A DNA stretch of 64,000 bases from contig MGPQ01000001.1 of NCBI GenBank assembly GCA_001797465.1, positions 62,001 to 126,000 of the forward strand. Direction: 5' to 3'. The DNA comes from Deltaproteobacteria bacterium GWB2_55_19 (lineage in GTDB: Bacteria > Desulfobacterota > GWC2-55-46). The notes under the pieces were generated by a model, which was not told the DNA's origin, did no database searches, and saw only the letters and a program-made list of their open reading frames with translations. The position numbers and the translations under genes were made by a program. Within the stretch, counting starts at the first letter, position 1. Every line of letters starts with the position of its first letter. Positions 19,023-44,932 of this stretch are shown piece by piece.

Positions 19023-19067
19023 AATGTAATCCAGGTTACATTCATCCATCGCGGGATTTTGTATATT
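19023..19067 (+). promoter_or_regulatory. CRP/FNR-like operator and promoter of the cytochrome operon
   Basis: AATGTAA (19023-19029) and TTACATT (19036-19042) form a perfect inverted repeat with a 6-nt spacer, a TGTAA-N6-TTACA pattern of the CRP/FNR regulator family. A -10 element TATATT follows at 19062-19067. If transcription starts about 7 nt later (near 19074), the operator centre lies at -41.5, the classical position for class II activation, and no good -35 is present. The predicted leader before the ATG at 19081 is only ~7 nt and lacks a Shine-Dalgarno sequence. Confidence 0.6.
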
Positions 19068-19080
19068 ACCCGCAGATCGT

Positions 19081-20100
19081 ATGAATACCTCCGCACTCAA
19101 AAAGGAAGAACCGGGCACAAGCCGCTTCACGCTGGAAGTCGTCCCCAGCCCAGCGTCTGAGCCCCGCGCGCCCGCGGCTGAGGAGCATGCGGCCCCCGTA
19201 TCAAGGCAGAAGGCAGGCGCCGTCGATAAGAAGGCCTTTGAGTCGTTCCTCGTCATATCAGTCCTCTTCCTGACCGCAGTCCTAATATATGAGTCAATCA
19301 CACAGGCCAGCCTCAGACACATAAGCCTTTTAAGTCTCGCGCACGCGTTCGGGTACTTGAAGTCCATCCCGGTAGAGTTTAAGCCGTCCAGCGGGCTCTG
19401 GCTCCTCTTCGGCTGGACAGGGACCGGGATGATGGTCCTCATGATGGCCTATACGCTCCGGAAAAGGGGCGGACTGCTGGGAAGGCTCGGCTCTATGAGG
19501 ATATGGCTGAACGGGCACATGTTCCTCGGCGTCATGGGGCCTGTCCTGATCGTCTTCCACACGACCTTCAAGTTCAACGGGATCATAGGGACGAGCTTCT
19601 GGTGCATGGTCGTAACAGCCATATTCGGCGTCCTCGGCAGATACATCTACCTGCAGATACCGAGGTCGATGACAGGCGCGGAGTTGAAGGAGAAGGATAT
19701 AGAGCGCCTCATAACGGGCCTTGAGGCCGAGATAGAGCTCCGCTCAAAGGGGTTGAAGGCGGGCGCGTTCTTATCCGAGATAACCTCTCCGGAGAAGGCC
19801 CAATCGATAGGCCCGGTAAAGGCGCTCCTTTACATGATGTGGAACGATACGGCCAACAGGCTCAAGGTGAGACGCATAAAGAGGGAGCTTAAGCGCGATT
19901 ACGGGCTCTCGCCAAGGGTGATGGCCGCGCTCGGCGCGCTCCTCTCACGGAAGTCCGCGCTCATAAGGAAGAGGAACTTTCTCTCAACCTCCCAGAAGCT
20001 CCTCCACTACTGGCACGTCCTGCACATACCGCTCGCGATAGTCATGTTCCTCATTATGTTCGTGCACATAGCCGTCTATTACATGTTCAGGCCGGTTTAG
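19081..20100 (+). CDS. Integral membrane b-type-cytochrome-like protein of the conduit operon
   Basis: After a ~55-residue Pro/Ala-rich cytoplasmic segment come several hydrophobic helices: SFLVISVLFLTAVLIY, LWLLFGWTGTGMMVLMMAY, MFLGVMGPVLIVFH, CMVVTAIFGVLGRYIYL and, at the C-terminus, LAIVMFLIMFVHIAVYYMF. Histidines fall within or beside helices (GHMFLG, VFHTTFKF, HYWHVLHIPLA, FVHIAVYY), the pattern of a haem-b quinol oxidase such as cytochrome b561 or ferric-reductase-like proteins. Its likely job is to pass quinol electrons to the multiheme cytochrome encoded 90 nt downstream. No exact family name is claimed. Confidence 0.7.
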   Translation: MNTSALKKEEPGTSRFTLEVVPSPASEPRAPAAEEHAAPVSRQKAGAVDKKAFESFLVISVLFLTAVLIYESITQASLRHISLLSLAHAFGYLKSIPVEFKPSSGLWLLFGWTGTGMMVLMMAYTLRKRGGLLGRLGSMRIWLNGHMFLGVMGPVLIVFHTTFKFNGIIGTSFWCMVVTAIFGVLGRYIYLQIPRSMTGAELKEKDIERLITGLEAEIELRSKGLKAGAFLSEITSPEKAQSIGPVKALLYMMWNDTANRLKVRRIKRELKRDYGLSPRVMAALGALLSRKSALIRKRNFLSTSQKLLHYWHVLHIPLAIVMFLIMFVHIAVYYMFRPV

Positions 20101-20101
20101 T

Positions 20102-20131
20102 CCGGCCTTCCACGCTCTGCGCGGAGGCCGG
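20102..20131 (+). other. Hairpin between the b-type-cytochrome-like gene and the multiheme gene
   Basis: CCGGCCTTCC and GGAGGCCGG can pair, and an inner CGC/GCG extends the stem. There is no U tract, so it is probably not a terminator. It could stabilise mRNA ends or set relative expression of the two genes. Confidence 0.4.
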
Positions 20132-20190
20132 GGGCTGACCTTCACGATGGTCCCGCCGCTTATCGATAATAATCCAAACGGAAAGTAAAA

Positions 20191-23100
20191 TTGAAAAAAA
20201 CAAAAATCATATACCCGTTGCTTCTCCTCCTGACGCTCTTTTTAGCCTCCGCGTCCGCTTCAGCCAAGGACGGCGGTGGGGGCTCCCTCATAAGCCCGGG
20301 GGACCTCGCCTCGGCCCACTCCAAGTACGAGGGGATAAGCAACTGCACGCAATGCCACAGGATGGGCGGCGGCATACCGGACTCAAAGTGCCTCGATTGC
20401 CACGACAAGCTCTCGGCGAAGATGAAAGGCGGCAAGGGCTTCCACGCCAATATTAAGGACCCCTGCATCAAGTGCCACGCCGACCACAAGGGCAGGTCGT
20501 ACAAGATGGTCGTCTTTGAAAAAGAGAAGTTCGACCATGCCAATACGGAATATCCCCTTAAAGACAAACACTCGGCGGTCCAGTGCGTCAAGTGCCACAG
20601 GAAGGAGGGTGTCTATACCGTCGCGACTACCGAGTGCGTCTCCTGCCACAGGGACGAGCACAAAAAACAGCTCAACCAGGACTGCTCGAAGTGCCATAAC
20701 ATCAAGGGCTGGAAGGACATAGCGCTCTTCAGCCACAAGACAGGCTCAGTATACCCGCTCGAAGGCAGGCATGTTGACGTAAAATGCGCCAGATGTCACG
20801 TAAGCGGCAGGTACAAGCCCATAGAGTTTAAGAAGTGCCTGGACTGCCACAAGGACACGCACAGGGGCCAGTTCATTGGCAGGACCTGCGAGTCATGCCA
20901 CACGGTCAAGGACTGGAAGACGACTTCGTTCGACCACAACGCGCCGTCGTACAAGGGGTACAGGCTTGAAGGCAAGCACATCACGACCCAGTGCGACAAG
21001 TGCCATGTAAAGGGGAAGTACAAGCCGATCCCCTCAGGCAAGTGTCTGGACTGCCACGCGGACCCGCACAAGAGGCAGTTTCCGGGCAAGACATGCGAGT
21101 CATGCCACACGGTCAAGGGCTGGAAGACCACCTCCTTTGACCATAACGCGCCTGCGTACGCCGGATACAGGCTTGAAGGCAAGCACATCAAGGTCGATTG
21201 CGCGAAGTGCCACGTGGACGGCAAGTACAAGCCGCTGCCTTACAAACAGTGCCTGGACTGCCACAAGGACGAGCACAAGGGGCAGTTCAAGGGAAAGACC
21301 TGCGAATCGTGCCACACGGTAAGGGACTGGAAGACGACGTCCTTCGAGCACAACGCTCCGGCGTACCCCGGTTACAGGCTCGAAGGAAAACACCTTCAGA
21401 CCAAATGCGACAAGTGCCATGCGGAGGGCAAATACAGGCCGCTTCCATACAAGCAGTGCCTGGACTGCCATAAGGACGAGCACAACGGCCAGTTCGCAAA
21501 GCAGAGGTGTGAGGCGTGCCATACGGTCAAGGACTGGAAGTCGGCCTCCTTTGACCACAACGCGCCGACGTACCTCGGTTACAGGCTCGAAGGCAAGCAC
21601 AGCAAGGTCGAGTGCGCTAAGTGCCATATAAAGGGCAAGTACAAGCCTTTGCCGGCGGAATGCGTCGACTGCCACAGGAAGGACGACACACACAAGGACG
21701 AGCTCGGGGCTGTCTGCGAGAAGTGCCACACGGCCCTTGACTGGAAGAAGATAACGCTCGACCATAACGCGAAGACGAAGTTCCCGCTCGTCGCCGCGCA
21801 CAAGACGACGCCCTGCGACAAGTGCCACAGGAACAAGAGCTACAAGACCAAGGCCGAGAAGTGCATCGACTGCCACAAGGACGTCCACAAGGGCAAGTTC
21901 AAGGAGGAGTGCAACTCCTGCCATACCCAGGCGGACTGGAGGCCGAGGGCCTTTGACCACGCGAAAAAGGCCGGGTTCGCGCTCTCGGGCGTCCATAACG
22001 ACCTCGTATGCGGCGCGTGCCACACGAAAAAGGACGAGTACAGGTTCCTGTCGCGCTTCTGCAGCCAGTGCCACACGGACCCGCACAGGAACCAGTTCGG
22101 CTCGGAGTGCTCTGAGTGCCATACGGAGCGTTCCTGGGCGCTCAACAAGTTCAAGCACTCGTCGACGTCCTACCCGCTCTCCGGCAGGCACAGGAGTGCC
22201 GAGTGCCAGGACTGCCACAGGAACCGCCAGTACAGGGCGACATCGAGGGTCTGCGTCAACTGCCACCTATCGTCGTATTCGAGCGCGCCGAATCACCTCT
22301 CCCGCGGCTACAGCCAGGACTGCGCCCAGTGCCACGCTACCAACTTCGTCTCCTGGGTATTCAGGCACTCAACCGCGAACACCGGGTGCTCGTCATGCCA
22401 CTTAAACGACAGGCCTTCGAGCCACGTGTCCAACCCTTCGTCTTACTCGACGACCTGCGAGCAATGCCATACGTCCACGGCGTCATGGAGCTCGCACAAG
22501 CATACGTCGGCGACGACCGGCTGTTCGTCGTGCCACCTGAGTTCGAGGCCGTCTTCGCACTCGTCCAACCCGTCCAAGTACCCGACGACCTGCGAGAGCT
22601 GCCATACCTCGACGGTCTCGTGGTCGACGTCCAAACACGTATCCACGTCGACCGGGTGCTCCTCGTGCCACTTGAGCGAGAGGCCAGGCTCGCACTCGTC
22701 GGACCCGTCCAAGTACTCGACTACCTGCGAGCTCTGCCACTCATCCACGGCGTCGTGGAGCTCGCACAAACATACGTCGGCGACGACGAACTGCTCGACG
22801 TGCCACTTGAGCGACAGGCCTTCGACCCACACGTCGAACACCTCCTTGTACTCGACGACCTGCGAGAACTGCCACAAGTACCCGACGTGGACGTATTCTC
22901 ACACGGCTACGACGAACTGCTCGTCGTGCCACCTGAACGAGAGGCCTTCGACCCACACGTCTAACACCTCCTTGTATTCGACTACCTGCGAGAACTGCCA
23001 CAAGTACCCGACGTGGACTGCCTCTCACACTGCAACGACCGGCTGTTCGTCGTGCCACCTGAACGAGAGGCCTTCGACGCATACGTCGAACACGGCAACG

Positions 23101-23466
23101 TATTCGACTACATGCGAGACCTGCCATAAGTACCCGACATGGACCTGGTCGCACACCGTGACGACCGGCTGTTCGTCGTGCCATACGTCAGACGCGCCTT
23201 CGGCGCACACGACCTACGCGAGCGCCTTCGGGACTACGTGCGAGACCTGCCACACCTATCCGACATGGACCTCCACGAAGATAAGCCACTCGTCGCTCAC
23301 TACGTTCCCGTCCACCCACAAGGGGTATTCACAGTGCTCGGACTGCCACCCGTCCATGAGCTACGCGACCGGCAACTGCATCAACTGCCACAAGTCCGTC
23401 GGCGCCGACACGCACAATACGACGTCTGACTCGGTATGCCTGAGCTGTCATCCGAAGGGCAATTAA
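20191..23466 (+). CDS. Giant secreted c-type cytochrome with 47 CXXCH haem-binding motifs
   Basis: A signal peptide (IIYPLLLLLTLFLASASASA) precedes a 1091-residue protein in which I count 47 CXXCH motifs. From 20887 to about 21700 there are four 69-residue modules with three haems each, of the form CESCHTVKDW ... CDKCH ... CLDCHKDEHK. From 22447 to 23229 there are six 42-45-residue Ser/Thr-rich modules with two haems each (TTCENCHKYPTW ... CSSCHLNERPS). Many extra His residues could act as distal ligands. It presumably forms a long haem wire across the periplasm or outside the cell. The start is TTG at 20191 with GGAAAG upstream. The next gene, a beta-barrel, is 9 nt away. Confidence 0.95.
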   Translation: MKKTKIIYPLLLLLTLFLASASASAKDGGGGSLISPGDLASAHSKYEGISNCTQCHRMGGGIPDSKCLDCHDKLSAKMKGGKGFHANIKDPCIKCHADHKGRSYKMVVFEKEKFDHANTEYPLKDKHSAVQCVKCHRKEGVYTVATTECVSCHRDEHKKQLNQDCSKCHNIKGWKDIALFSHKTGSVYPLEGRHVDVKCARCHVSGRYKPIEFKKCLDCHKDTHRGQFIGRTCESCHTVKDWKTTSFDHNAPSYKGYRLEGKHITTQCDKCHVKGKYKPIPSGKCLDCHADPHKRQFPGKTCESCHTVKGWKTTSFDHNAPAYAGYRLEGKHIKVDCAKCHVDGKYKPLPYKQCLDCHKDEHKGQFKGKTCESCHTVRDWKTTSFEHNAPAYPGYRLEGKHLQTKCDKCHAEGKYRPLPYKQCLDCHKDEHNGQFAKQRCEACHTVKDWKSASFDHNAPTYLGYRLEGKHSKVECAKCHIKGKYKPLPAECVDCHRKDDTHKDELGAVCEKCHTALDWKKITLDHNAKTKFPLVAAHKTTPCDKCHRNKSYKTKAEKCIDCHKDVHKGKFKEECNSCHTQADWRPRAFDHAKKAGFALSGVHNDLVCGACHTKKDEYRFLSRFCSQCHTDPHRNQFGSECSECHTERSWALNKFKHSSTSYPLSGRHRSAECQDCHRNRQYRATSRVCVNCHLSSYSSAPNHLSRGYSQDCAQCHATNFVSWVFRHSTANTGCSSCHLNDRPSSHVSNPSSYSTTCEQCHTSTASWSSHKHTSATTGCSSCHLSSRPSSHSSNPSKYPTTCESCHTSTVSWSTSKHVSTSTGCSSCHLSERPGSHSSDPSKYSTTCELCHSSTASWSSHKHTSATTNCSTCHLSDRPSTHTSNTSLYSTTCENCHKYPTWTYSHTATTNCSSCHLNERPSTHTSNTSLYSTTCENCHKYPTWTASHTATTGCSSCHLNERPSTHTSNTATYSTTCETCHKYPTWTWSHTVTTGCSSCHTSDAPSAHTTYASAFGTTCETCHTYPTWTSTKISHSSLTTFPSTHKGYSQCSDCHPSMSYATGNCINCHKSVGADTHNTTSDSVCLSCHPKGN
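20887..21714 (+). repeat. Four tandem 69-codon tri-haem modules
   Basis: Units begin at 20887, 21094, 21301 and 21508, exactly 207 bp apart, each starting with the Cys codon of CESCH or CEACH. Unit content is CE(S/A)CHTV, a YRLEGKH segment, C(D/A)KCH and a third CXXCH. Exact spacing implies in-frame duplication of a tri-haem unit. Confidence 0.85.
22447..23229 (+). repeat. Six tandem 42-45-codon di-haem modules
   Basis: Three 45-codon units are followed by three 42-codon units. Each contains TTCExCH, then a CSSCH or CSTCH followed by RPS(S/T)H-type text. The DNA copies are close enough to suggest recent expansion, and the region opens long spurious frames on other strands. Confidence 0.85.
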
Positions 23467-23475
23467 GGGGAAGCG

Positions 23476-24714
23476 ATGAAGACCGAATATCGAAAAATAA
23501 GGCTCGCGTCGTGTCTGGCGCCGGTCTTTGTTATGCTCCTGGGCGGCCAGGCGCTCTCAGCCCAGACAAAGGGGAGCCTCTCCATCGAGGACTATTACCT
23601 TAATGACACGTCCGACGACGGCTATCAGCACCTCTTAACGACGCGGCTTAAGCTCGACATGACGAAGCTTGACAAGAGCGGCGCGTGGGCCCTGCACTTT
23701 GACGGCAGGGAGCGGCTTAACCTCGGCACTTACGATAGCTCCAGCGAAGACGCCCGCGTGGACGTACTTAACTTCGACTACACCGGAAAGTCGGTCTACG
23801 TCGCCGTCGGCAGGGTCTGGCCGAAGGAGCTCTCCACCGAGCGCGTGGATGGCGTGAACGCGGTCTATCAATGGGACAAGTACGGCCTCGGCTCGTTCCT
23901 GGGCCTGCGCCCGGACCCGTACTCAGAGATGTTCACGACGGAGTTCGTCTCCGGCGGCGCGTACGCGTATTACAAGACCGACTCTCTTTCGACGAACGCC
24001 GCATTCACGCACACCATGTACAAGGGCGCTACCGACAGACAATACCTCTACAGCCAGACTACCTATGTGAAGGAGAAGATCACTCTCCTCGGTCTCTTGA
24101 CAGGCGACATCAACCAGAGGACAAAGGGCCTTTCGCTCACGAACGGCCTCCTTGACCTCTCCTTCAAGCCCGCCCCGAACAAGGGCGTAAGCGTCGGGTA
24201 CAACCAGTTCAAGTCCGTCCAGCTCTACGCCTCGACTGACGAGGAGGTCGACCCAGGCTCCGAGCGCTCGTACTACCTTGCCTTTAATTACCGCTTCAGG
24301 GACAAGTACAATCTGTTTGCGAGGGTTGAGAGGCAGAACCGCGATTACGCGAGCCTTGAGGACGGCTATAAGGACGGGATGGCGTACAAGACCGGCGTGA
24401 ACATCGACGGCCTACTCAAGACCGGCGTGAACCTGAACCTCGGGGCGTCCCTGAGCGACGGGTTCGGCGGCGAGTACAACTCTTACGATATCGAGGCCTC
24501 AAGGGTCTTCAAGGAAGTATTACAGCTCGTCATGAATGGCTCTTACAGCCTGAGCAGGTACACGGACTCAGATACGACCCGGATATGGGCTTACGGCCTC
24601 TCAGGCTACCTCTATATGTCGAAGAGGTGGACGTTTACGCTCTCTTACAATGGGGAGTACGCGGAAGACTACACGGTCAACAGCCTCCTTACCCGCCTCG
24701 CGATCAAGTTCTGA
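23476..24714 (+). CDS. Outer-membrane beta-barrel protein of the cytochrome conduit
   Basis: A signal peptide ending near QALSAQ (residue ~30) is followed by alternating amphipathic strands rich in Tyr, Gly, Asp and Lys, such as YLAFNYRFRDKYNLFARVER and RWTFTLSYNGEY. The chain ends ...LAIKF, with the C-terminal Phe used for outer-membrane barrel assembly. At 412 residues a barrel of about 16-20 strands is expected. It starts 9 nt after the multiheme gene, matching the porin-cytochrome organisation in which a barrel sheathes haems across the outer membrane. The family assignment rests on this pattern only. Confidence 0.82.
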   Translation: MKTEYRKIRLASCLAPVFVMLLGGQALSAQTKGSLSIEDYYLNDTSDDGYQHLLTTRLKLDMTKLDKSGAWALHFDGRERLNLGTYDSSSEDARVDVLNFDYTGKSVYVAVGRVWPKELSTERVDGVNAVYQWDKYGLGSFLGLRPDPYSEMFTTEFVSGGAYAYYKTDSLSTNAAFTHTMYKGATDRQYLYSQTTYVKEKITLLGLLTGDINQRTKGLSLTNGLLDLSFKPAPNKGVSVGYNQFKSVQLYASTDEEVDPGSERSYYLAFNYRFRDKYNLFARVERQNRDYASLEDGYKDGMAYKTGVNIDGLLKTGVNLNLGASLSDGFGGEYNSYDIEASRVFKEVLQLVMNGSYSLSRYTDSDTTRIWAYGLSGYLYMSKRWTFTLSYNGEYAEDYTVNSLLTRLAIKF

Positions 24715-24840: not shown

Positions 24841-26139
24841 TTACTCGGTCCCGAACTTCTTTTCGATCCTGACGCCTATGGAGAGCAGGAACTCGTTCGG
24901 GAGCTCTCCGCCGGCGAAGATATAGACGTAATCGTTATTGATAAACGCCTCCTTGCCTTCCGTTTCGATCCTGACGTCCTTTTCGCGTATCTCTTTTACA
25001 TTTGAGTTGAGTATGACCGTCACCGACTTTTTGGATACTGCCTCGTCGAGCCGCGTCTTGTTCATCGGCTTTATGCGCTTGAAGGAGTCGGAGCGGTATG
25101 AAAGGGATACCTTGTTCCCCGGCTGTTTGGCGAGTGCGATGGCGGCCTCGATGGCGCTGTCCCCGCCGCCGACGACGAGGAGGTGATGGTCCCTGTGCTG
25201 TTCCGGGTCGAGGAGGCTGTAGGTGACCTTGGGCAGTTTTTCCCCGGGGACGTCGAGCTTTCTGGGCGTCCCGCGCCTGCCTATGGCGAGGATGACGTTC
25301 CTCGCCGGGTACTCTCCCTTTGACGTTTTCACCCTGAAACCGTCGGCCTCCCTCGCAAGCCCCGTCATCTTCTCCCCGGTCCTTATCTCCAGCCCGGTCT
25401 TTTTGATGACCGAGGTCCAGAGGTCGAGGAGCGCTTCTTTCGTCGTCTCGCGGAGCCGCACGCTCCCGTAGAGCGGGAGCTCGACCGGTGAGGTCATCAC
25501 TATCTTGTGGCGGGGGTAATTGAAGACAGTGCCGCCGACGTCACCCTGCTCAATGGTCACGAACTTAAGGCCCTTTTTTGAGGCCATCAGCGAGGCGCCG
25601 ACGCCCGCTGGGCCGGCGCCTATTATGATTACGTCGTACGCCTCGGCGCGCCCCTTGTCCGCCCCGAGCCTGCAGGAGATGTATTCGACGGCCTCTCTCC
25701 CCTGGGTGATGGCGTTCTTTATGAGCCCCATGCCGCCGAGCTCTCCGGCTATGAAGATGCCCTTTATGTTCGTCTCGAAGTCGGGGGTGAGGTGCGGGAT
25801 ATCCACGCCGCGAGTCTCGGTGCCGAATACGAGCGCGATAGCGCCCACAGGGCAGGCCTCGGCGCACGCGCCGTGTCCGACGCAGTGCGAGGCGTTTATG
25901 AGCCCGCCTTTGCCGCCTATTAGGCCTATGATGTCCTTTTCAGGGCAGGCCTTCACGCACGCGCCGCTTCCGATGCATTTGGAGGGGTCTATCTTCGGGT
26001 GGATCGTCGTAGGCTCGCGGAAGCCGTATTCTTCGGCGAGGGCGACCTTCTTCTTTACCTTTTTTGATTTTCTGGAGATGATGCTCAGGTAAAGGGCTAT
26101 GGCGAGCACTATGAGCGCGGCTGAGATGATGGAGGTCAA
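24841..26139 (-). CDS. Membrane-anchored ferredoxin-flavin oxidoreductase
   Basis: An N-terminal helix (IISAALIVLAIALYLSII) precedes two ferredoxin-like cluster motifs and a pyridine-nucleotide-disulfide-type flavoprotein domain (VIIIGAGPAGVGAS near residue 170, LLVVGGGDSAIEAA near 310, GELGGMGLIKNAITQGREA near 130). The cluster motifs are C55-x2-S-x2-C-x3-CP and C86-x2-H-x2-C-x3-CP: each lacks the second Cys of a standard 4Fe-4S site. The flavin half resembles YpdA/thioredoxin-reductase-like enzymes. It probably shuttles electrons between NAD(P)H and a membrane or cytochrome partner. It is convergent with the conduit operon. Confidence 0.82.
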   Translation of the reverse strand: MTSIISAALIVLAIALYLSIISRKSKKVKKKVALAEEYGFREPTTIHPKIDPSKCIGSGACVKACPEKDIIGLIGGKGGLINASHCVGHGACAEACPVGAIALVFGTETRGVDIPHLTPDFETNIKGIFIAGELGGMGLIKNAITQGREAVEYISCRLGADKGRAEAYDVIIIGAGPAGVGASLMASKKGLKFVTIEQGDVGGTVFNYPRHKIVMTSPVELPLYGSVRLRETTKEALLDLWTSVIKKTGLEIRTGEKMTGLAREADGFRVKTSKGEYPARNVILAIGRRGTPRKLDVPGEKLPKVTYSLLDPEQHRDHHLLVVGGGDSAIEAAIALAKQPGNKVSLSYRSDSFKRIKPMNKTRLDEAVSKKSVTVILNSNVKEIREKDVRIETEGKEAFINNDYVYIFAGGELPNEFLLSIGVRIEKKFGTE

Positions 26140-30780: not shown

Positions 30781-31470
30781 ATGGCGATAAGGTCCAAGAA
30801 GATACTTGTCGTGGATGACGACGAACTCATCCGCGATTGTTGCGTGGATATCCTCACAAACAGCGGGTACACGGTTGAAACCGCGTCAAACGGGATGCAG
30901 GCTATCGAGCGGCTCTCCGCCGAGACCTACGACCTCGTCATATCCGACGTAAACATGCCTCTTCTCGACGGCATCGGGCTCTTTCTCTCGGTCATGCGCG
31001 AGTTCCAGTACCTCAAAGACAGGTTCTTCTTCATGACAGGGGATATCCCCGGAGGTGCCGAGGGGCCGGTCCTGAAAGGGCTCGGCAGAAAGGTCATAGC
31101 AAAGCCGTTCAGGGTAAAGGAGCTTCTTGAGACTGTCGACGAATGCCTGAACCCTCTTGCGTATTCAGTATGCAGTTGGCCGAAGAGGATGAGCGAGAGG
31201 TTCGCGTTCGTAGCTGACTGCACGGTCGAGTTCGGCGAAGGCGCCGTAAGGCTCTCGGCGCGGGTACTCGACATCTCGGAGAGAGGGCTCAAACTCAAGT
31301 ACCCGGGAGAGCCGAAGGGCGCGGATGTGGACGCCGGGGTCTATATAAAGGGGCTTGACCTTAAAAGGACCGGGCGCGTCAAATGGTCCCGCTCGGCTGA
31401 AGGCGCGGTTATCTCAGGTATAGAGCTTACAGAGCCCCTGCCGGTCTCCTCGGTCCTGGGTAAGAGGTAA
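30781..31470 (+). CDS. Response regulator with PilZ c-di-GMP-binding domain
   Basis: An N-terminal receiver (ILVVDDDELIRD, phospho-acceptor in LVISDVNMPLLDG near residue 57, switch Lys in VIAKPF) is joined to a C-terminal PilZ domain. PilZ signatures are RxxxR in RMSER and DxSxxG in DISERG, so c-di-GMP binding is expected. The protein can integrate phosphorylation with c-di-GMP level, and the partner CheA could be the kinase encoded 8 kb downstream. It lacks a DNA-binding domain, so the output is probably protein interaction. Confidence 0.9.
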   Translation: MAIRSKKILVVDDDELIRDCCVDILTNSGYTVETASNGMQAIERLSAETYDLVISDVNMPLLDGIGLFLSVMREFQYLKDRFFFMTGDIPGGAEGPVLKGLGRKVIAKPFRVKELLETVDECLNPLAYSVCSWPKRMSERFAFVADCTVEFGEGAVRLSARVLDISERGLKLKYPGEPKGADVDAGVYIKGLDLKRTGRVKWSRSAEGAVISGIELTEPLPVSSVLGKR

Positions 31471-31610
31471 CTCCCCGGTCTGTCCGGTTCTTCTTTCATA
31501 ACCAGCGGGTGAAAACATCCGTTTTCCTGCAGGTCCCTCTTTATGTCGCATCCTAAGTCTGCTAAAGTACATATCGTCTGGACGGTAAATTCCACTCATC
31601 CGGGACCTTC

Positions 31611-32933
31611 ATGTCGATATCGTTGCGGACCAAGATCATCTCGAGTTTTTTCATCGTCTTCGCGCTCCTCTCCTTCCTCGGCGCCCTCTCCCTTTACAAT
31701 AGGAACCTCATCTACGACGGCATGATGGAGGTGGAGGACGCCTCCCGCGATCTGAAGTACATATCCGACTTGAAGCTCTCCCTTGACATGGCGGTGATGC
31801 CGGCGAACGACTATCTCATAACCGGCGACCCGGCCGAGAAGGCCAGGTTCGTCGAGCTCGTTAAGGATGTTGAGGAGAGGTTCTCTCTGCTTAAGGGCGC
31901 GGGGATGTATGACGAGGGCATAAAAACAGCCGAAACGAAGTTCGGTCTCCTCAAACAGAAGTCCATGCATGTACTGGCAAGCCTCCCGGCTGTGCATAAC
32001 AGACGCGACGCGGCCCTGATGGAGGAGATAGACGCCCTCGCCCTGGACATCATAGCCAACCACCTCGACAGGGTATATCTGGGCAAGAGGGATGAGATGT
32101 CTTACAGGGTAGAGGCCGCCTCTTCCTTGAGGCACAAGGTCGACGCCATACTCTTTGCCGTGGCGGCCGTCTCTTTCCTCGCAATTATCGGCGTCGCCGC
32201 GTACCTCTTCCGTTCGATATTGAGGCCCATAGACGAGCTGACGCGGGGCGCGGCGATAATAGGGAACGGCGACCTCGGCCACAGGGTCGATATAAGGGAT
32301 GGCATCGAGATGAACCTCCTCGCCGATGAATTCAACCGCATGGCCGGGAGACTCGGCGAGTCCTACGCGGAGCTCGAAAAAAAGATAGACGAGAGGACAA
32401 AGGAGCTGAACGAGGCGAACGGGCGCCTGAAAGCTCTCTCCATAACCGACGGGCTCACCGGGGCGTACAACCACAGGCACTTCGCAGAGAGGCTTGAAGA
32501 GGAGTGCAAGCGCTCGGCCCGGTACGGGAAAAGGCTCTCCCTCATAATGTCCGATATAGACCACTTCAAGAGCTACAACGACCTTAACGGGCACCCGGCA
32601 GGGGACGCGGTCCTCGCAGGGGTCGCCGAGTGCCTTAAGGACGGGATAAGGGGTCAAGACCTCCTCGCGAGATACGGCGGAGAGGAGTTCTCGATAATAC
32701 TCCCTGAGACGGGTAAAGAAGAGGCGTGCCTCATGGCCGAGAGGATAAGGGCGAGGGTAAGGGATAAGGTCTTCCCTAACGAGTCGGGACAACCCGGAGG
32801 GGACCTTACCATGAGCTTCGGGGTCGCCTCTTGCCCGGAGGATGCCGCCAGCGCCGAAGACCTCGTGAAGAAGGCCGACGCGGCGCTTTACAGGGCCAAG
32901 GAGGCTGGCAGGGACAGGGTCGAGTGCGCCTGA
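31611..32933 (+). CDS. Membrane diguanylate cyclase with periplasmic sensor, HAMP and GGDEF domains
   Basis: Two membrane helices (residues ~10-28 and ~180-200) flank a ~150-residue helical sensor containing AVMPANDYLITG at 61-72 and NRRDAALMEEID near 132. HAMP follows (RSILRPIDELTRGA to NRMAGRL), then a coiled coil and a GGDEF domain starting SITDGLTGAYNHRHF. The active site reads GGEEF, and an RxxD inhibitory site (RGQD) precedes it, so the enzyme should make c-di-GMP with product feedback. The first 72 residues align without gaps to those of the HAMP-PAS protein at 43149. Confidence 0.93.
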   Translation: MSISLRTKIISSFFIVFALLSFLGALSLYNRNLIYDGMMEVEDASRDLKYISDLKLSLDMAVMPANDYLITGDPAEKARFVELVKDVEERFSLLKGAGMYDEGIKTAETKFGLLKQKSMHVLASLPAVHNRRDAALMEEIDALALDIIANHLDRVYLGKRDEMSYRVEAASSLRHKVDAILFAVAAVSFLAIIGVAAYLFRSILRPIDELTRGAAIIGNGDLGHRVDIRDGIEMNLLADEFNRMAGRLGESYAELEKKIDERTKELNEANGRLKALSITDGLTGAYNHRHFAERLEEECKRSARYGKRLSLIMSDIDHFKSYNDLNGHPAGDAVLAGVAECLKDGIRGQDLLARYGGEEFSIILPETGKEEACLMAERIRARVRDKVFPNESGQPGGDLTMSFGVASCPEDAASAEDLVKKADAALYRAKEAGRDRVECA

Positions 32934-33016
32934 AAATGGCAAAAGTCCTCAATCCCGCATTTAATAAATTAAAACCGCCCGCCTCAATCCACCATGTATG
33001 TGCCCTTCATAAGGCC

Positions 33017-33045
33017 TTGACGTAAAACATGTTTTAGGGTATTAC
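33017..33045 (+). promoter_or_regulatory. Promoter with palindromic operator upstream of the chemosensory operon
   Basis: TTGACG (33017-33022), a 17-nt spacer and TATTAC (33040-33045) form a good sigma-70 promoter. The spacer contains a perfect 14-bp palindrome, TAAAACATGTTTTA (33023-33036). A repressor bound there would occlude RNA polymerase between the two elements. Confidence 0.65.
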
Positions 33046-33187
33046 TATTGTAAGCATTGCTTTAAATGGCTTTCCAGGCATAAGCGGTCCTGACGGCGGG
33101 GCGGTCTTATGCAGGGGGTGGACGCGTAGCTGGCGTCCCATACAAACAAACCACCATGCAAAGGATGGGACATGATGGCGTGCCCCA
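33046..33187 (+). ncRNA. Structured 5' leader of the chemosensory operon (class unknown)
   Basis: The ~140-nt leader can form an outer GCATAAG/CTTATGC stem (33078-33084 with 33106-33112), GGACGC/GCGTCC (33120-33125 with 33133-33138) and a possible CCCAT/ATGGG pairing nearer the start codon. It does not match the conserved core of c-di-GMP riboswitches. Regulation by this leader is only a possibility. Confidence 0.3.
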
Positions 33188-34558
33188 TTGTACTGCGAGA
33201 TGGATGGAAAAAGGCTGAAACTCATATCGGGGCTTGTCTCCGAGGCGACGGGACTGCGCATACGCCCTGACGATTATCCCAATCTCTTGAAGGCCGCCTC
33301 CGAGAGGGCGCGCCTTTCAAATATCTCGGTCGAAGACTATATCGACCTCATCCGATCCCCGCTTTTTGACCGGAAGGAAAAAGAGGCCTTGAAGGCACTG
33401 CTTTCCGTGCCCGAGTCCTTTTTCTTCAGGGACAAGGGGCAGTTTGATCTTATCCGTGCAAGGATACTCCCCGAGATCGTCGAAAAAAGGCGCGCCGAGA
33501 GGCGCTTAAGCCTCTGGAGCGCCGGTTGCTCCTCAGGCGAGGAGCCCTACTCGCTCGCGATACTCGTAAGGGAGGCCCTGCCGGACTATAAGTCATGGGA
33601 TATCACCATACTAGGGACCGACATAAGGGAAGACCTCCTGGAAAAGGCCCGAAAGGGGCTCTACGGAGAATGGTCTTTCCGCACTGTGGAGCCCGAGGCC
33701 AAGGCCGCATGGTTCAGGAGGTCCGGTGCGTACTGGGAAATAGACCCGTCGATAAGGGAGATGGTGGAGTTCAGGAAGGCCGACCTCATTGGCGGCGATT
33801 GCCCCGAGGGCATGGACTTCATACTCTGCCGGAACGTATTCATTTATTACAGTAAAAAGGCCATAGCAGGGATGGCCGGGAGGCTCGTCTCGGCCCTTGC
33901 GCCCGGCGGATACCTCTTTACCGGACACGGAGAGTTCTACGGGGTCAAGGTCGAAGGCTTGAAGACAATGACCTTTCCCGAATCCGTAGCCTACATGAAG
34001 GCGTTGCCCGAGGAGGCGTTTTCGGTGAGGCCCGCCTCAGGCGCGCCGGAGAGAGCCCCGGCCAGGGCCGCAAAACTGGCCCAGAAGGGCCTCAATAGGT
34101 CCGGAGCCCCTCCCGTTGCCGGGGGTCCCGGCGGTACCGCAAGCAGGGCCGAGGCCGCCGGGCCGCTCATACTCGCCGCCTCGGTTTATGCGGACGCAGG
34201 AGAATTAAAGAAGGCCTCCGAGTGCCTCCTGAAGGCGCTGGACGCCGACAAGTTCTCGTTAGAGCCGTACTTCCTCCTCGCCCAGATAGCCGAAGAGAGC
34301 GGGGACGTCGAGGACGCGAAGAGGTGGCTCAAGAAGGCCCTGTACGTCAACCCGTCTTTTGTCCCGGCATACCTTGAGCTCGCCTCCATCTACGACAACG
34401 AGGGGCTCATCGAGAGGGCGGAGAGGATGCGTGAAAGCGCGCTTTCGATCCTCTCCTCCATGCCCCCGGACGCCCCGATAGAGCATTATGAGCAGACCAA
34501 CGCCGGAGAGCTCTCCGGGTTCCTGAAAAAGACGGCCGAGGGCGGCCGGAAGAAATAA
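33188..34558 (+). CDS. CheR-type protein-glutamate methyltransferase with C-terminal TPR (WspC-like)
   Basis: Residues ~1-275 form a CheR methyltransferase: ESFFFRDKGQFDLI, the SAM loop WSAGCSSGEEPYSLAI near residue 115, GTDIREDLLEKARKG, FILCRNVFIYY and FTGHGEFYG. A Pro/Ala-rich linker leads to TPR repeats (~330-430, KASECLLKALDAD, DAKRWLKKALYVNPSFVPAYLELA). CheR-TPR fusions such as WspC use the TPR to reach receptors lacking a tether pentapeptide, and both receptors here lack one. The start is TTG at 33188; an ATG four codons on (33200) is equally possible. Confidence 0.92.
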   Translation: MYCEMDGKRLKLISGLVSEATGLRIRPDDYPNLLKAASERARLSNISVEDYIDLIRSPLFDRKEKEALKALLSVPESFFFRDKGQFDLIRARILPEIVEKRRAERRLSLWSAGCSSGEEPYSLAILVREALPDYKSWDITILGTDIREDLLEKARKGLYGEWSFRTVEPEAKAAWFRRSGAYWEIDPSIREMVEFRKADLIGGDCPEGMDFILCRNVFIYYSKKAIAGMAGRLVSALAPGGYLFTGHGEFYGVKVEGLKTMTFPESVAYMKALPEEAFSVRPASGAPERAPARAAKLAQKGLNRSGAPPVAGGPGGTASRAEAAGPLILAASVYADAGELKKASECLLKALDADKFSLEPYFLLAQIAEESGDVEDAKRWLKKALYVNPSFVPAYLELASIYDNEGLIERAERMRESALSILSSMPPDAPIEHYEQTNAGELSGFLKKTAEGGRKK

Positions 34559-34563
34559 TCGTT

Positions 34564-35565
34564 ATGGAAAAAACGGTAACCCCATTCGTGGTATTCAGGC
34601 TCTCCGGCTCCCTCTACGGGGTGAAGGCCGAGAGTGTCAGGGAGATGCTCAAGCTCCCTGAGCTCGTCCCGCTTGAGGAGGCCCCGTCCTATATACCTGG
34701 TTTTTTCAACCTGCGGGGCGGAATCGTTCCTGTCATGGACCTCGAGATGAGGTTAGGACACCCGTTTCACTGTTATTCCATAGACGACGCGCTGATAATC
34801 GTAGATGAGGGCACTCTCATGGGGATAATAGCGAGCGAGCTCCTCTCGGTCGAGGATATCCCGCCCTCAGCTATCGAGGCCCTCTCGCCCATTCAGAAGG
34901 AAGGCGCGCGCCATCACTTCATCGGGGGCGAGGCGAGACGCGGCGAAGACATCGTGATGCTCCTGGACCTCGAGGCCGTCGTCGATCACGGGACCGGGCC
35001 AGGGGTCGACGAGGGGGCGTTGCGCGCGTTCTGGCCAGAGGCCTCCGAGGGGCAAAGGGAGGTCCTCAAAGAGAGGGCGCGGGTCTTAAGCGAGCCTTCT
35101 TCAGGGCTTGAGGCCGAAGGGGTCATGCCTTTCGCGGTCATCGTGCTCGGGGGCGAGCGCTTCGCCATAAGGTGCGAGAGCATCCGCGAGTTCGCGGAAC
35201 TTAAAGACCTTACGCCCGTGCCGTGCACGCCCGCCCACATACTCGGGGACACCAATCTCCGGGGCGACGTCCTGACGGTCATAGACATAAGAGGGCGCCT
35301 TGGCATGTCCCCGGCGGCTCCGGGGCCCGGCTCCAAGGTGGTAGTCGCTGAGGCCGGCGGCGTAAGGGCCGGTGTGCTTGCCGACTCCGTCGAGGAGATA
35401 GCGTATTTGAGCCCTGCGGAGATAACGCCTGCCCCGCTCTCGTCAAAACAGGCGGAAGACGAGTACCTGTTGGGAGCGGCGCGGAGCGGGGAGAGGATGA
35501 TAGCGGTCATAGACCTCGAGAGGATGCTCACTAAAGGCGGCCTCCTTGTAGACGAGACCGTATAG
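34564..35565 (+). CDS. Tandem CheW-domain coupling protein
   Basis: Two CheW domains lie in one 333-residue chain: the first at ~5-145 ([43 protein letters not shown]), the second at ~180-325 ([42 protein letters not shown]). A helical linker of ~30 residues joins them. CheW couples receptors to CheA; Wsp systems have two separate CheW proteins (WspB and WspD), so this looks like a fused equivalent. It starts 5 nt after cheR. Confidence 0.93.
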
Positions 35566-35587
35566 CAATGAAAAGGAGAAGATCGAT

Positions 35588-37030
35588 ATGCGAGGAATGA
35601 AGGTAAGGACCGGGATGCTCCTCGGGAACCTCATAGGCGCGGCGCTCTTTGTAATAGTAGCCATCGTCGTGCTCGTAAGCGCCAACACCGTATCGAGGTC
35701 GATAGATGAGATCGCCGCTTCATCGAGGGACCTCGACACGGCGAACGAGCTCAACGATTCCGTGAACGAGATGGTGAGGGCCGTAAGGGACTATGCGATA
35801 GCCCGCGACAAAAGCGTGCTGGATGCCTTTGAGGAAGGCGTAAGAAGTTTCGAAGCGGTCTCGGAAAGGGCGAAGGAGATACCGGACCCTGTCCTGCAGG
35901 GCCGCATGAACGAGCTCATATCCCTGGGCAGGCAGTATTACGGGATCGGCAAAGAGGTTATAGAGATCGTGGACAGGGGCAGGCCGATAGAGGCGGCTGT
36001 ACCTGTGATAAAAAAGGCAAGGCCGGTCTTCGAGAGGATGAAGCCCATCATGAGGGAGTTCCACGAGAGGACCGATTCCGTTTTGAAAGCAGACGAACAG
36101 GCCGCGCTCTCCGCGGCCAGGACCCTTTACACGGTCTTGATAGCAGGCGTTATCGTCTCGATCGGCCTTGCGGTTGGAGGGGCCGTCTTGATTTCGTCAT
36201 GGATAGCGAAGGGCGTAAAGGAGTCCACCGGCGCGGTCTCTGCGGCGACAAGCGAGATAGCCTCGACCGTCGCCGAGCACGAGAGGACCGCCTCCGCGCA
36301 GTCGGCGTCTGTCACCGAGACCGCCGCGACGATGAACGAGCTCGGGGTGTCTTCAAAAAAGGTTTCGGAGCAGGCGGAGAGCGCGACGGAAGGCGCGAAG
36401 CATGTCATGTCCCTCGCCGAGGAGGGATTGAAGACCGTCGAGCAGACGATAGAGGGGATGGCTACTATAAAGGAGAAGTCGGGGACCATAGCCGGTGAGA
36501 TACTCAAGCTGAGCGAGCAGACGGCTCAGATAGGGTCAATCGCTAACCTCGTGACCGACATATCCTCGCAGATAAACATGCTCGCGCTTAACGCCGCGGT
36601 CGAGGCGGTCAGGGCCGGAGAGCACGGAAAGGGCTTCAATGTGATAGCCCAGGAAGTGAGAAAGCTTGCCGACCAGGCGAGGAAGTCCGCCGAGCGAGTG
36701 AACGGCATCGTCGTCGACATACAGAAGGCGACGAACGCCGCTATAATGGCGACCGAGGAGGGCACCAAGACGATAGAGGAAGGCGCGAAGCTCGCGGAGA
36801 GGACGACAGAGGCCTTCAGCGGCGTGAACGCCTCCATAACCGCGGCGTTCGACAGCTTCAGGCAGATATCTCTCAACATCGCCCAGCAGGCCGCGGCGAT
36901 AAAGCAGGTCATGGAGGCTGTGAACGCCATAACAGCGGGCTCGAAAGAGACCGCCGCCGGCATAGCCCAGACCAAGGTGGGGATAGACAGGATAAACGAG
37001 AGGGCGCGGGCGTTGAACGAGATGGTCTAG
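35588..37030 (+). CDS. Methyl-accepting chemotaxis protein, four-helix-bundle-type sensor
   Basis: TM1 ([18 protein letters not shown], residues ~12-30) and TM2 ([24 protein letters not shown] fragments, ~178-205) enclose a ~145-residue helical periplasmic sensor. The cytoplasmic part runs straight into the signalling coiled coil with no clear HAMP domain. The hairpin tip is [20 protein letters not shown]. No CheR-binding pentapeptide ends the chain (...RARALNEMV), in keeping with the CheR-TPR neighbour. It corresponds in position to WspA. Confidence 0.93.
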
Positions 37031-37041
37031 GACGAGGAATT

Positions 37042-38601
37042 GTGGATAGAAGCAGACAGAGGGATCTCGCCATACTCATAATCGCCTTCCTGGCCTCGAT
37101 TGCGATGTCGGCGGCGCTCGGCCTCATGGAGCACGCTCTCTGGCCGAGCGAGCCGCTCCATTCCGCGATTGAGGCCTTCGGCGCGTTTGAGGCGGTAACC
37201 CTTGGAGGCATAATCCTCCTCTTCAGGGGCCGGAAGGGCTCGGCCCTCGGGAACGCGTGGGTGGCCGCGGGGCTCCTTTCCATGGGCGCACTCGACGTTT
37301 TTCACGCGTCCGTGCGCCCTGGAGCGGCCTTCGTCTGGCTCAGGTCCTGGTCGAGCCTCTTCGGCGGGCTCTTTTTCTCGCTCGTATGGATAGAGGCCGC
37401 AGGCGCGTCCATGAGGAGGGCGGTCCCTGCCTCGGCCGCGGTATTCGCAACGATCTTCGGCGTCTTTTCCATCGTGTTCGCCGGAGGCCTTCCGTTGATG
37501 AGCGTAAAGGGTGAATTCACGGCCTTATCGGTCGGGATAAATATCGCCTCAGGCCTTTTATTCCTCGCGGCGATGCCGAAGTTCTTCGTGAGCTGGTGGA
37601 GGCACGGGACGAGGGACGATTTTCTCTTCGCCTTCATCTGCCTCCTCTTCGGGACCTCGGGCCTCCTATTCAAGTTCTCCCAACTGTGGGACCAGGGCTG
37701 GTGGTACTGGCATTTTCTGAGGCTTGCGGCATACGTGATAGTCCTCTCATATTCTCTGCTCATCTACAAGAGGTTCATAGCCGGCATTACAGAGGCGGTT
37801 TCGGGCATCTCGTCCACTGCGGCAGAGATCGCCGCGGCCGTGGAGGAGCACGAGAAGACGGCCTCTGCGCAGGCGGCCTCCGTAGCAGAGACCACCGCCG
37901 CCATGGACGAGCTTTCATCGAGTGCGGCCCTTTCAAGGGAGCAGGCGAAAAGCGCCTCCTCAGGCGCCGAGGAGGCCCTGAAGATATCGAAAGAGGGAGT
38001 CGATACCGCCAATAAGGCGCTCTCCATCATGGAAGGGCTGAGAGAAAGGGTGGACGCCATAGCGGGCCGGACAACTGATTTGAGCGAGCGCATAGGGCAG
38101 ATAAGCGGCATATCCTCATTGGTTGCGGACATTGCTTCCCAGATAAACATGCTCGCTCTAAACGCCGCGGTCGAGGCGGTGCGCGCAGGGGAGGCGGGGC
38201 GGGGCTTCGGCATCATAGCCCAGGAGGTGAGAAAGCTCGCGGACGAGGGGAGAAAGGCCGCCGAGAGGGTGAACTCCATCTCCTCGGAGATAAGGAAATC
38301 CGCCGCCTCGACCGTCGCGGCCACGGAACTCGGCGCAAAGGCCGCCAGGGACGGGGCGGCGCTCATGAAGAGGAACTCGGACGCCTTCAAGGCCGTCGAT
38401 TCCTCTGTCGCGGACGCGTACGAGCGCGTAAGGCAGATACTCCTTAATACGGTCCAGCAGGCCGAGGCCGTGGAGCAGGTATTGAGGGCCATGAACGCAA
38501 TAAACTCCGGGGCAAGGGAGACCGCCGCGGGACTCAAGCAGACGAGGGGCGGGGTAGAGGACCTGAACGGCGCGTCGAAACGGCTTTTAGATATCACATG
38601 A
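37042..38601 (+). CDS. Methyl-accepting chemotaxis protein with multi-pass membrane sensor
   Basis: The N-terminal ~245 residues hold about seven hydrophobic helices (LAILIIAFLASIAMSAALG, AVTLGGIILLF, FFSLVWIEAAG, AVFATIFGVFSIVFAGG, FLFAFICLLFGTSGLLF, LAAYVIVLSYSLLIY), recalling MASE-type integral sensor domains including a DVFHASV motif. No periplasmic domain or HAMP is seen; the signalling coiled coil begins at once and carries [20 protein letters not shown]. Its ligand is probably membrane-borne or a membrane state. The start is GTG at 37042, 11 nt after the first receptor gene. Confidence 0.9.
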   Translation: MDRSRQRDLAILIIAFLASIAMSAALGLMEHALWPSEPLHSAIEAFGAFEAVTLGGIILLFRGRKGSALGNAWVAAGLLSMGALDVFHASVRPGAAFVWLRSWSSLFGGLFFSLVWIEAAGASMRRAVPASAAVFATIFGVFSIVFAGGLPLMSVKGEFTALSVGINIASGLLFLAAMPKFFVSWWRHGTRDDFLFAFICLLFGTSGLLFKFSQLWDQGWWYWHFLRLAAYVIVLSYSLLIYKRFIAGITEAVSGISSTAAEIAAAVEEHEKTASAQAASVAETTAAMDELSSSAALSREQAKSASSGAEEALKISKEGVDTANKALSIMEGLRERVDAIAGRTTDLSERIGQISGISSLVADIASQINMLALNAAVEAVRAGEAGRGFGIIAQEVRKLADEGRKAAERVNSISSEIRKSAASTVAATELGAKAARDGAALMKRNSDAFKAVDSSVADAYERVRQILLNTVQQAEAVEQVLRAMNAINSGARETAAGLKQTRGGVEDLNGASKRLLDIT

Positions 38602-38619
38602 CGCGTTGCGGAGCAGTGC

Positions 38620-40920: not shown

Positions 40921-40944
40921 TACGGGGCCGATGAAAGGGTTATC

Positions 40945-41991: not shown

Positions 41992-42004
41992 AAGAAAGGC
42001 CGTC

Positions 42005-43147: not shown

Positions 43148-43148
43148 C

Positions 43149-44906: not shown

Positions 44907-44932
44907 ACGGCTCTGCATAAAGGTGAAAGACC

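What the first reader, a model, noticed from the sequence alone, without database searches (positions are those of the whole stretch)
19023..24714. A 47-haem cytochrome in a compact three-gene electron conduit
Seen: one reading frame (20191-23466) with a signal peptide and 47 CXXCH motifs by direct count, preceded by a multi-helix membrane protein with helix-borne His residues and followed 9 nt later by a C-terminal-Phe beta-barrel. Known: porin-cytochrome complexes carry electrons across outer membranes, usually with separate periplasmic and outer cytochromes of about 8-12 haems. Inference: here a single very long cytochrome may span periplasm and barrel, giving a minimal inner-membrane-to-exterior wire in three genes. 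This size and arrangement look unusual.
Basis: partly seen in the sequence, partly recalled or inferred. Interest (0 to 1): 0.8.

Follow-up and report, generated by a model that had tools for sequence, protein, structure and literature searches.

The report
Fused giant-cytochrome extracellular electron conduit
This bacterium appears to carry a single very long protein holding 47 haems that, with a membrane cytochrome on one side and an outer-membrane barrel on the other, could carry electrons all the way out of the cell; such conduits are known, but elsewhere this job is shared by two separate cytochromes.

Summary
One frame (20191-23466) has 47 CXXCH motifs (about 0.8 expected in shuffles), a 5-helix membrane protein upstream and a barrel gene 9 nt downstream. 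The trio is real: in relatives every barrel gene with readable upstream sequence (19/19) directly follows the cytochrome, and every readable cytochrome start (21/21) follows the membrane protein. The kind is known: the membrane protein carries the two WX3HX13H motifs of the 'PCC3' conduits (He et al. 2017, PMC5566968), which already have cytochromes of 21-85 haems proposed as envelope-spanning wires. What differs is that PCC3's periplasmic and extracellular cytochromes are one polypeptide here. The N-part (29 haems; 26-32 in relatives) matches the separate periplasmic cytochrome. The S/T-rich C-part (18 haems; 9-38) resembles the separate second cytochrome more weakly. Gene order is collinear with two-gene versions in the same order and in Emticicia oligotrophica (Bacteroidota). 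The barrel is predicted as 22 strands without a plug, about 40 Å across, so it could hold a haem wire. Threading itself is not shown. The flavoprotein suggests NAD(P)H or ferredoxin, not quinol, may feed the wire.

The parts
19081..20100 (+). MEMB: inner-membrane protein, 339 aa, PCC3/PCC4-type IMP. WX3HX13H at W142-H146-H160 and W311-H315-H329, predicted to hold two b haems; FGVLGR on TM4; 115-aa K/R-rich loop between TM4 and TM5.
   Evidence: Invariant motif columns in alignment A2; motif scan in 30+ homologues; no Pfam/NCBIfam family; motif definition from PMC5566968.
20191..23466 (+). CYT: 47-haem c-type cytochrome, 1091 aa, signal peptide, no lipobox.
   Evidence: Pfam Cytochrome_C7 (15 stretches) and Cytochrom_c3_2 (11 stretches).
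20266..22260 (+). CYT N-part (residues 26-690): 29 haems, charged, roughly 69-aa three-haem repeats (spacing 17/17/35). Counterpart of the separate periplasmic PCC3-type cytochrome.
   Evidence: Spacing and composition; 38% identity to the 21-haem cytochrome of L077, E 2e-93; 35% to Emticicia MHC1, E 2e-106; DNA tandem repeat period 207.
22261..23466 (+). CYT C-part (residues 691-1091): 18 haems, 40% Ser+Thr, two-haem repeats (spacing 22-23/19-23). Length-variable counterpart of the second (extracellular-type) PCC3 cytochrome.
   Evidence: DNA tandem repeats of period 135 and 126.
23476..24714 (+). BAR: outer-membrane beta-barrel, 412 aa, signal peptide, C-terminal Phe, 22 predicted strands, no plug domain.
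   Evidence: AlphaFold2 on alignment A1, pLDDT 85.5, pTM 0.71; VIA-align best matches are 22-strand TonB-dependent receptor barrels without their plugs, Z 19-21 over about 350 residues.
24841..26139 (-). FAD: N-terminal membrane helix, two Fe-S motifs and a pyridine-nucleotide/FAD oxidoreductase domain, 432 aa. Conserved partner, probably the cytoplasmic electron donor or acceptor.
   Evidence: Pfam Pyr_redox_3 E 6e-50, Fer4_10 E 2e-11; hydropathy 3-21 and GAGPAG/GGGDSA motifs; conserved in 18 of 20 barrel loci and same-strand beside MEMB in L084 and Emticicia.

Best explanation
A PCC3-like trans-envelope electron conduit in which the periplasmic and the extracellular multihaem cytochromes have become one polypeptide. 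Proposed path: cytoplasmic NAD(P)H or ferredoxin -> membrane-anchored Fe-S/FAD flavoprotein -> two b haems of the five-helix inner-membrane protein -> the 29-haem N-part across the periplasm -> the Ser/Thr-rich C-part inside a plug-free 22-strand barrel and, where long, beyond it -> an extracellular acceptor such as Fe(III)/Mn(IV) minerals or a partner cell. Shown by sequence: the parts, their conserved linkage, the two-part build of the cytochrome, and its correspondence to two separate collinear genes elsewhere. Inferred: threading of the barrel, donor identity, direction and acceptor.
For: Linkage: every barrel with readable upstream sequence follows CYT, MEMB precedes every readable CYT start, and FAD is present in 18/20. 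IMP motif identity to PCC3. Fusion: collinear two-cytochrome versions in L077-L079 and in Emticicia pEMTOL02 (MEMB-FAD-23 haem-40 haem-barrel); N-part matches the first cytochrome (E 1e-92 to 1e-106), and the C-part scores higher against the second (96 vs 66 bits in L077; 86 vs 41 in Emticicia). Emticicia's barrel is homologous to BAR (HMM E 1e-20). N-part haems 29.0 +/- 1.7 versus C-part 21.7 +/- 10.6 over 11 full-length proteins, mirroring PCC3's near-constant periplasmic (21-27) and variable extracellular (10-35) cytochromes. Copies in the same genus with no barrel nearby also lack the Ser/Thr-rich part (L092, L093). The 29-haem L077 cytochrome starts with sequence repeats I read as SPOR (peptidoglycan-binding), placing its N-terminus in the periplasm. 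The barrel is wide and plug-free. Unrelated FNR-type flavoproteins adjoin distant IMP relatives in L089 and L119, and by reading in L120.
Against: No structure of CYT, of CYT with BAR, or of anything with haem could be predicted. The MEMB model is poor (pLDDT 59), so only motifs and hydropathy support it. FAD is convergent here and absent at two of 20 barrel loci (L030, L035). C-part similarity to separate second cytochromes is modest and partly driven by repeats and composition. No expression data. In Sideroxydans, PCC3 clusters were not induced by Fe(II) (PMC8788666), so function of the kind is unproven.
Confidence: 0.62

Rival explanations
1. Quinone-linked version: the inner-membrane protein exchanges electrons with the quinone pool, as He et al. 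proposed for PCC3/PCC4, and the flavoprotein is a neighbour with another role.
For: The two HX13H helices also fit quinone-active cytochrome b (PMC5566968). FAD is convergent in the window and absent at L030 and L035.
Against: FAD lies in the same operon and beside MEMB in Emticicia and L084. It persists with the barrel-less second copies L092/L093. Distant IMP relatives pair with a different class of NAD(P)H flavoprotein.
Confidence: 0.35
2. The cytochrome stays in the periplasm (wire or charge store) and only its end touches the barrel, which admits small acceptors or is filled by an unknown partner.
For: No lipobox or surface anchor. No direct evidence of threading. Large multihaem proteins have been suggested as capacitors (PMC7399161).
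Against: The Ser/Thr-rich part with few charges resembles PCC3 extracellular cytochromes and occurs with barrels but not in the barrel-less copies. The barrel is plug-free and wide. No second cytochrome gene lies in the locus.
Confidence: 0.22
3. The system runs inward: extracellular electrons (Fe(II), a partner cell, a cathode) are taken up and delivered to the flavoprotein or quinone.
For: PCC3 was found in Fe(II) oxidisers (PMC5566968). Conduits of this kind are considered reversible (PMC10734462).
Against: Nothing in the locus indicates direction. Using low-potential NAD(P)+ or ferredoxin as acceptor from Fe(II) would be uphill (inference).
Confidence: 0.25

Closest known systems
PCC3 gene clusters (He et al. 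2017, PMC5566968; Gallionellaceae, PMC10734462)
   Same: Five-helix IMP of about 300 aa with two WX3HX13H motifs; porin gene; very long cytochromes with few residues per haem (here 22.7); periplasmic-type part nearly constant and second part variable in haem number.
   Different: One fused cytochrome instead of two; a smaller 22-strand barrel (PCC3 porins have up to 42 predicted strands); FGXXG instead of SGXXG on TM4; a conserved Fe-S/FAD flavoprotein that the 2017 paper does not mention.
Emticicia oligotrophica DSM 17448 plasmid pEMTOL02, EMTOL_RS21085-RS21110
   Same: Homologues of all four proteins in one operon with a cytochrome c biogenesis gene: MEMB (HMM E 2e-51), FAD (54% identity), N-type cytochrome, second cytochrome, barrel (HMM E 1e-20).
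   Different: Two cytochromes (23 and 40 haems) and a 538-aa barrel protein; Bacteroidota; gene order MEMB-FAD-cyt-cyt-barrel.
MtrCAB / MtoAB / PioAB
   Same: Works alike: a haem wire inside an outer-membrane barrel. The C-part has weak similarity to the MtrA/DmsE family (NCBIfam E 2e-8, far below cut-off) and to PDB 6r2q_A, which I recall as MtrA.
   Different: BAR does not match the MtrB/PioB Pfam family; no decahaem MtrA or surface lipoprotein; 22 rather than 26 strands.
Ext-type porin loci (porin plus 5-haem lipoprotein)
   Same: Remote similarity of BAR's N-terminal third to porins in G086 and G157 that are followed by 5-haem and 4- or 16-haem proteins (E 2e-9 and 2e-7).
   Different: No IMP or giant cytochrome there. 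The Ext identification is from memory, not tested.
Cyc2 fused cytochrome-porin
   Same: Fusion used to simplify an outer-membrane conduit.
   Different: In Cyc2 a monohaem cytochrome is fused to its porin; here two multihaem cytochromes are fused to each other and the barrel is separate.

Membership tests
PCC3 conduit | IMP of about 300 aa with two WX3HX13H motifs (TM3, TM5) | tested here: met
   W142/H146/H160 and W311/H315/H329, invariant in 11 homologues.
PCC3 conduit | SGXXG motif on TM4 of the IMP | tested here: not met
   FGVLG in the window and close relatives; SGXXG in L077-L079 and Emticicia.
PCC3 conduit | Five transmembrane helices in the IMP | tested here: inconclusive
   Hydropathy passes 4 segments; the fifth (106-129) appears only as a helix in a low-confidence model.
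PCC3 conduit | Separate periplasmic and extracellular multihaem cytochromes | tested here: not met
   A single 47-haem frame with both parts.
PCC3 conduit | Outer-membrane beta-barrel in the cluster | tested here: met
   22-strand model and 22-strand receptor matches.
PCC3 conduit | About 22-39 residues per haem with repeats | tested here: met
   22.7 residues per haem; tandem repeats.
MtrAB/MtoAB/PioAB | MtrB/PioB-family barrel (PF11854) | tested here: not met
   No Pfam match at E<=1 for BAR.
MtrAB/MtoAB/PioAB | DmsE/MtrA decahaem cytochrome | tested here: not met
   TIGR03508 33.9 bits versus cut-off 192.2.
OmbB-OmaB-OmcB / OetABI | Homologous porin and cytochromes | not tested
   No reference sequences were on hand.
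ExtABCD | ExtB-family porin | tested here: inconclusive
   Only remote similarity to porins beside 5-haem lipoproteins; no ExtB reference sequence.

The most novel reading that the evidence does not exclude
A quinone-bypassing, NAD(P)H- or ferredoxin-driven wire from cytoplasm to cell exterior: the flavoprotein feeds a NOX-like two-haem-b protein, and one polypeptide of 35-66 haems then runs from the inner membrane through a plug-free 22-strand barrel to the outside, with the protruding length tuned by gain and loss of two-haem tandem repeats.
Probability: 0.3. Interest if true: 0.8.

Novelty: new variant of a known kind. Interest (0 to 1): 0.5.

Why it matters
How electrons cross the periplasm and leave the cell is usually pictured as a relay of many small cytochromes. 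A fused version would fix the order and topology of the parts within one chain and make the envelope-spanning-wire idea directly testable. The conserved flavoprotein offers a concrete candidate for the unknown electron donor of PCC3-type conduits. Emticicia oligotrophica DSM 17448, a deposited strain outside the usual metal-cycling groups, carries the two-gene form and could be used for tests.

Tried and rejected
'47 haems is exceptional': rejected; 85- and 86-haem proteins are published and relatives here vary from 35 to 66. 'Barrel too narrow': not supported by the 22-strand model. MtrB/PioB membership: no Pfam match. PHROGs gave nothing for BAR or MEMB. PDB sequence searches gave only haem-motif-level matches. 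The MEMB structure prediction was too poor to search with. Foldseek listed 18-strand OprD-type porins first with TM about 0.45; VIA-align preferred 22-strand receptors. MtrB was not among the VIA rows, which excludes nothing. The single genome-contig scan reached only two near relatives, and a bona fide Proteobacterial PCC3 sequence could not be fetched, so the PCC3 comparison rests on published motifs and on the L077-L079 and Emticicia loci. I checked whether the 1354-aa L084 protein is a cytochrome-porin fusion; it is a 26-haem cytochrome fused to Sel1/ankyrin repeats. I suspected a GTDB class for the host from memory but did not test it.
Full report
CHECK. The window frame 20191-23466 encodes 1091 residues with 47 CXXCH motifs. 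All 94 cysteines lie in those motifs, and 49 further histidines are available as distal ligands, enough for bis-His haems throughout. Shuffling the mature sequence gives a mean of 0.76 motifs and a maximum of 4. The N-terminus is a cleavable signal peptide without lipobox. MEMB (19081-20100) and BAR (23476-24714, 9 nt after CYT, ending in Phe) are as described. No other ORF of 80 aa or more in the window has a CXXCH.

IS THE LOCUS REAL? BAR homologues were found in 17 of 59 related genomes. In 19 of 19 barrel loci whose contig reaches upstream (window, L021-L036, L082, L129) the gene before BAR is a CYT homologue. L037 could not be tested because the contig ends. In 21 of 21 loci with a readable CYT start, MEMB precedes it. 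A flavoprotein gene follows convergently in 18 of 20 barrel loci and is absent at L030 and L035. The nearest named relatives are groundwater 'Deltaproteobacteria' assemblies. Even the most remote barrel relatives in the phylum sit beside multihaem genes (G086, G157).

THE INNER-MEMBRANE PROTEIN. MEMB matches no Pfam or NCBIfam family. It has W142-x3-H146-x13-H160 and W311-x3-H315-x13-H329, invariant in 11 homologues. He et al. (PMC5566968) define exactly these two motifs, plus SGXXG on TM4, for the inner-membrane protein of their PCC3 and PCC4 conduits, and compare them with the two-haem-b helices of ferric reductases and NADPH oxidases. The window has FGVLG instead of SGXXG; relatives in the same order and in Emticicia have SGXXG. 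Its structure prediction was poor.

THE CYTOCHROME IS TWO PARTS. Residues 26-690 are charged (30% KRDE), with haem spacing 17/17/35, that is, three haems per 69 residues. Residues 691-1091 are 40% Ser+Thr, 9% KRDE, with spacing 22-23. Across 11 full-length homologues the N-part holds 29.0 +/- 1.7 haems and the C-part 21.7 +/- 10.6. The gene carries tandem DNA repeats of 207 nt (three haems) and 126-135 nt (two haems), and the near relative L021 differs by two haems in the C-part. The number 47 is therefore a snapshot.

A FUSION. In the same order, L077-L079 encode flavoprotein, an ankyrin-repeat protein, MEMB, a 21-haem cytochrome and a Ser/Thr-rich 19-29-haem cytochrome; L077, whose contig reaches further, also has a 705-aa protein with a SPOR domain and a C-terminus that looks like a barrel. 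In Emticicia oligotrophica DSM 17448 (Bacteroidota) plasmid pEMTOL02 the order is ccsA, MEMB, flavoprotein, 23-haem cytochrome, 40-haem cytochrome, barrel, with all four proteins homologous to the window's. The N-part aligns to the first cytochrome (327 bits) better than to the second (258), and the C-part to the second (86) better than to the first (41). In L077 the figures are 292 vs 139 and 96 vs 66. The cap spacings at both ends also agree. Gene order is collinear with the fused chain. Barrel-less second copies in the same genus (L092, L093) have a 21-haem cytochrome with no Ser/Thr-rich part. The Ser/Thr-rich L077 cytochrome begins with three repeats that I read as SPOR peptidoglycan-binding domains (Pfam was run only on the neighbouring 705-aa protein), which would put its N-terminus in the periplasm and its haem chain pointing outward.

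THE BARREL. AlphaFold2 on 16 sequences gives 22 strands (pLDDT 85.5, pTM 0.71). VIA-align ranks 22-strand TonB-dependent receptors first (Z 19-21, about 350 residues aligned), matched to their barrels without the plug. Standard barrel geometry for 22 strands gives a backbone diameter near 40 Å. An open pore of this size is compatible with a haem wire; that it is filled by CYT is inference.

THE FOURTH GENE. The 24841-26139 product has one N-terminal helix, two Fe-S motifs and an FAD/NAD(P) domain. It lies beside MEMB on the same strand in L084 and Emticicia. More distant IMP relatives are preceded by an unrelated FNR-type FAD/NAD/2Fe-2S flavoprotein and followed by a 7-haem cytochrome in L089 and Methylophaga L119, and apparently in Sphingobium L120. 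Association with two flavoprotein classes suggests that this two-haem-b family receives electrons from NAD(P)H or ferredoxin, unlike the quinone model of He et al.; this is inference.

KNOWN AND NEW. Extreme haem numbers (85, PMC5566968; 86, PMC12133095), porin adjacency and the periplasm-spanning wire idea (PMC10734462) are published. I found no description of the two PCC3 cytochromes as one polypeptide, nor of the flavoprotein partner, in the papers searched; the library is partial. As a length estimate from the OmcS rise per haem (my recollection, about 7.8 Å), 29 haems would reach about 226 Å, close to a periplasm's width. The organism has c-type cytochrome assembly genes and other c7-type cytochromes. 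Verdict: a new variant of a known kind, with threading, direction and donor still to be tested.

Noticed in passing
window 24841-26139 (-): Both Fe-S motifs of the flavoprotein lack the usual second Cys: C-IG-S-GA-C-VKA-CP and C-VG-H-GA-C-AEA-CP. The Ser and His are conserved as far as Emticicia, suggesting unusual cluster ligation.
   Followed up: partly
L084 5223-9287 (-): A 26-haem cytochrome fused to Sel1 and many ankyrin repeats, next to MEMB and the flavoprotein; in L077 the ankyrin/Sel1 protein is a separate gene of the same operon.
   Followed up: partly
L037 8823-11951 (-): A barrel homologue with long N-terminal SPOR (peptidoglycan-binding) repeats, 1042 aa.
   Followed up: partly
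L092 5598-9866; L093 9528-13766: Second set in the same genus: MEMB, 21-haem cytochrome and convergent flavoprotein, with no barrel nearby.
   Followed up: partly
L119 5953-9307; L120 4889-7388: Methylophaga and Sphingobium plasmids carry an FNR-type flavoprotein, a MEMB-like protein and a 7-haem cytochrome beside heavy-metal or copper genes; possibly a metal-related redox system.
   Followed up: partly
L026 7265-9983: The CYT homologue is split into two overlapping frames, either a frameshift in the gene or an assembly error.
   Followed up: no
window 30781-47158: A long run of genes that look like chemosensory and two-component signalling proteins downstream of the conduit.
   Followed up: no
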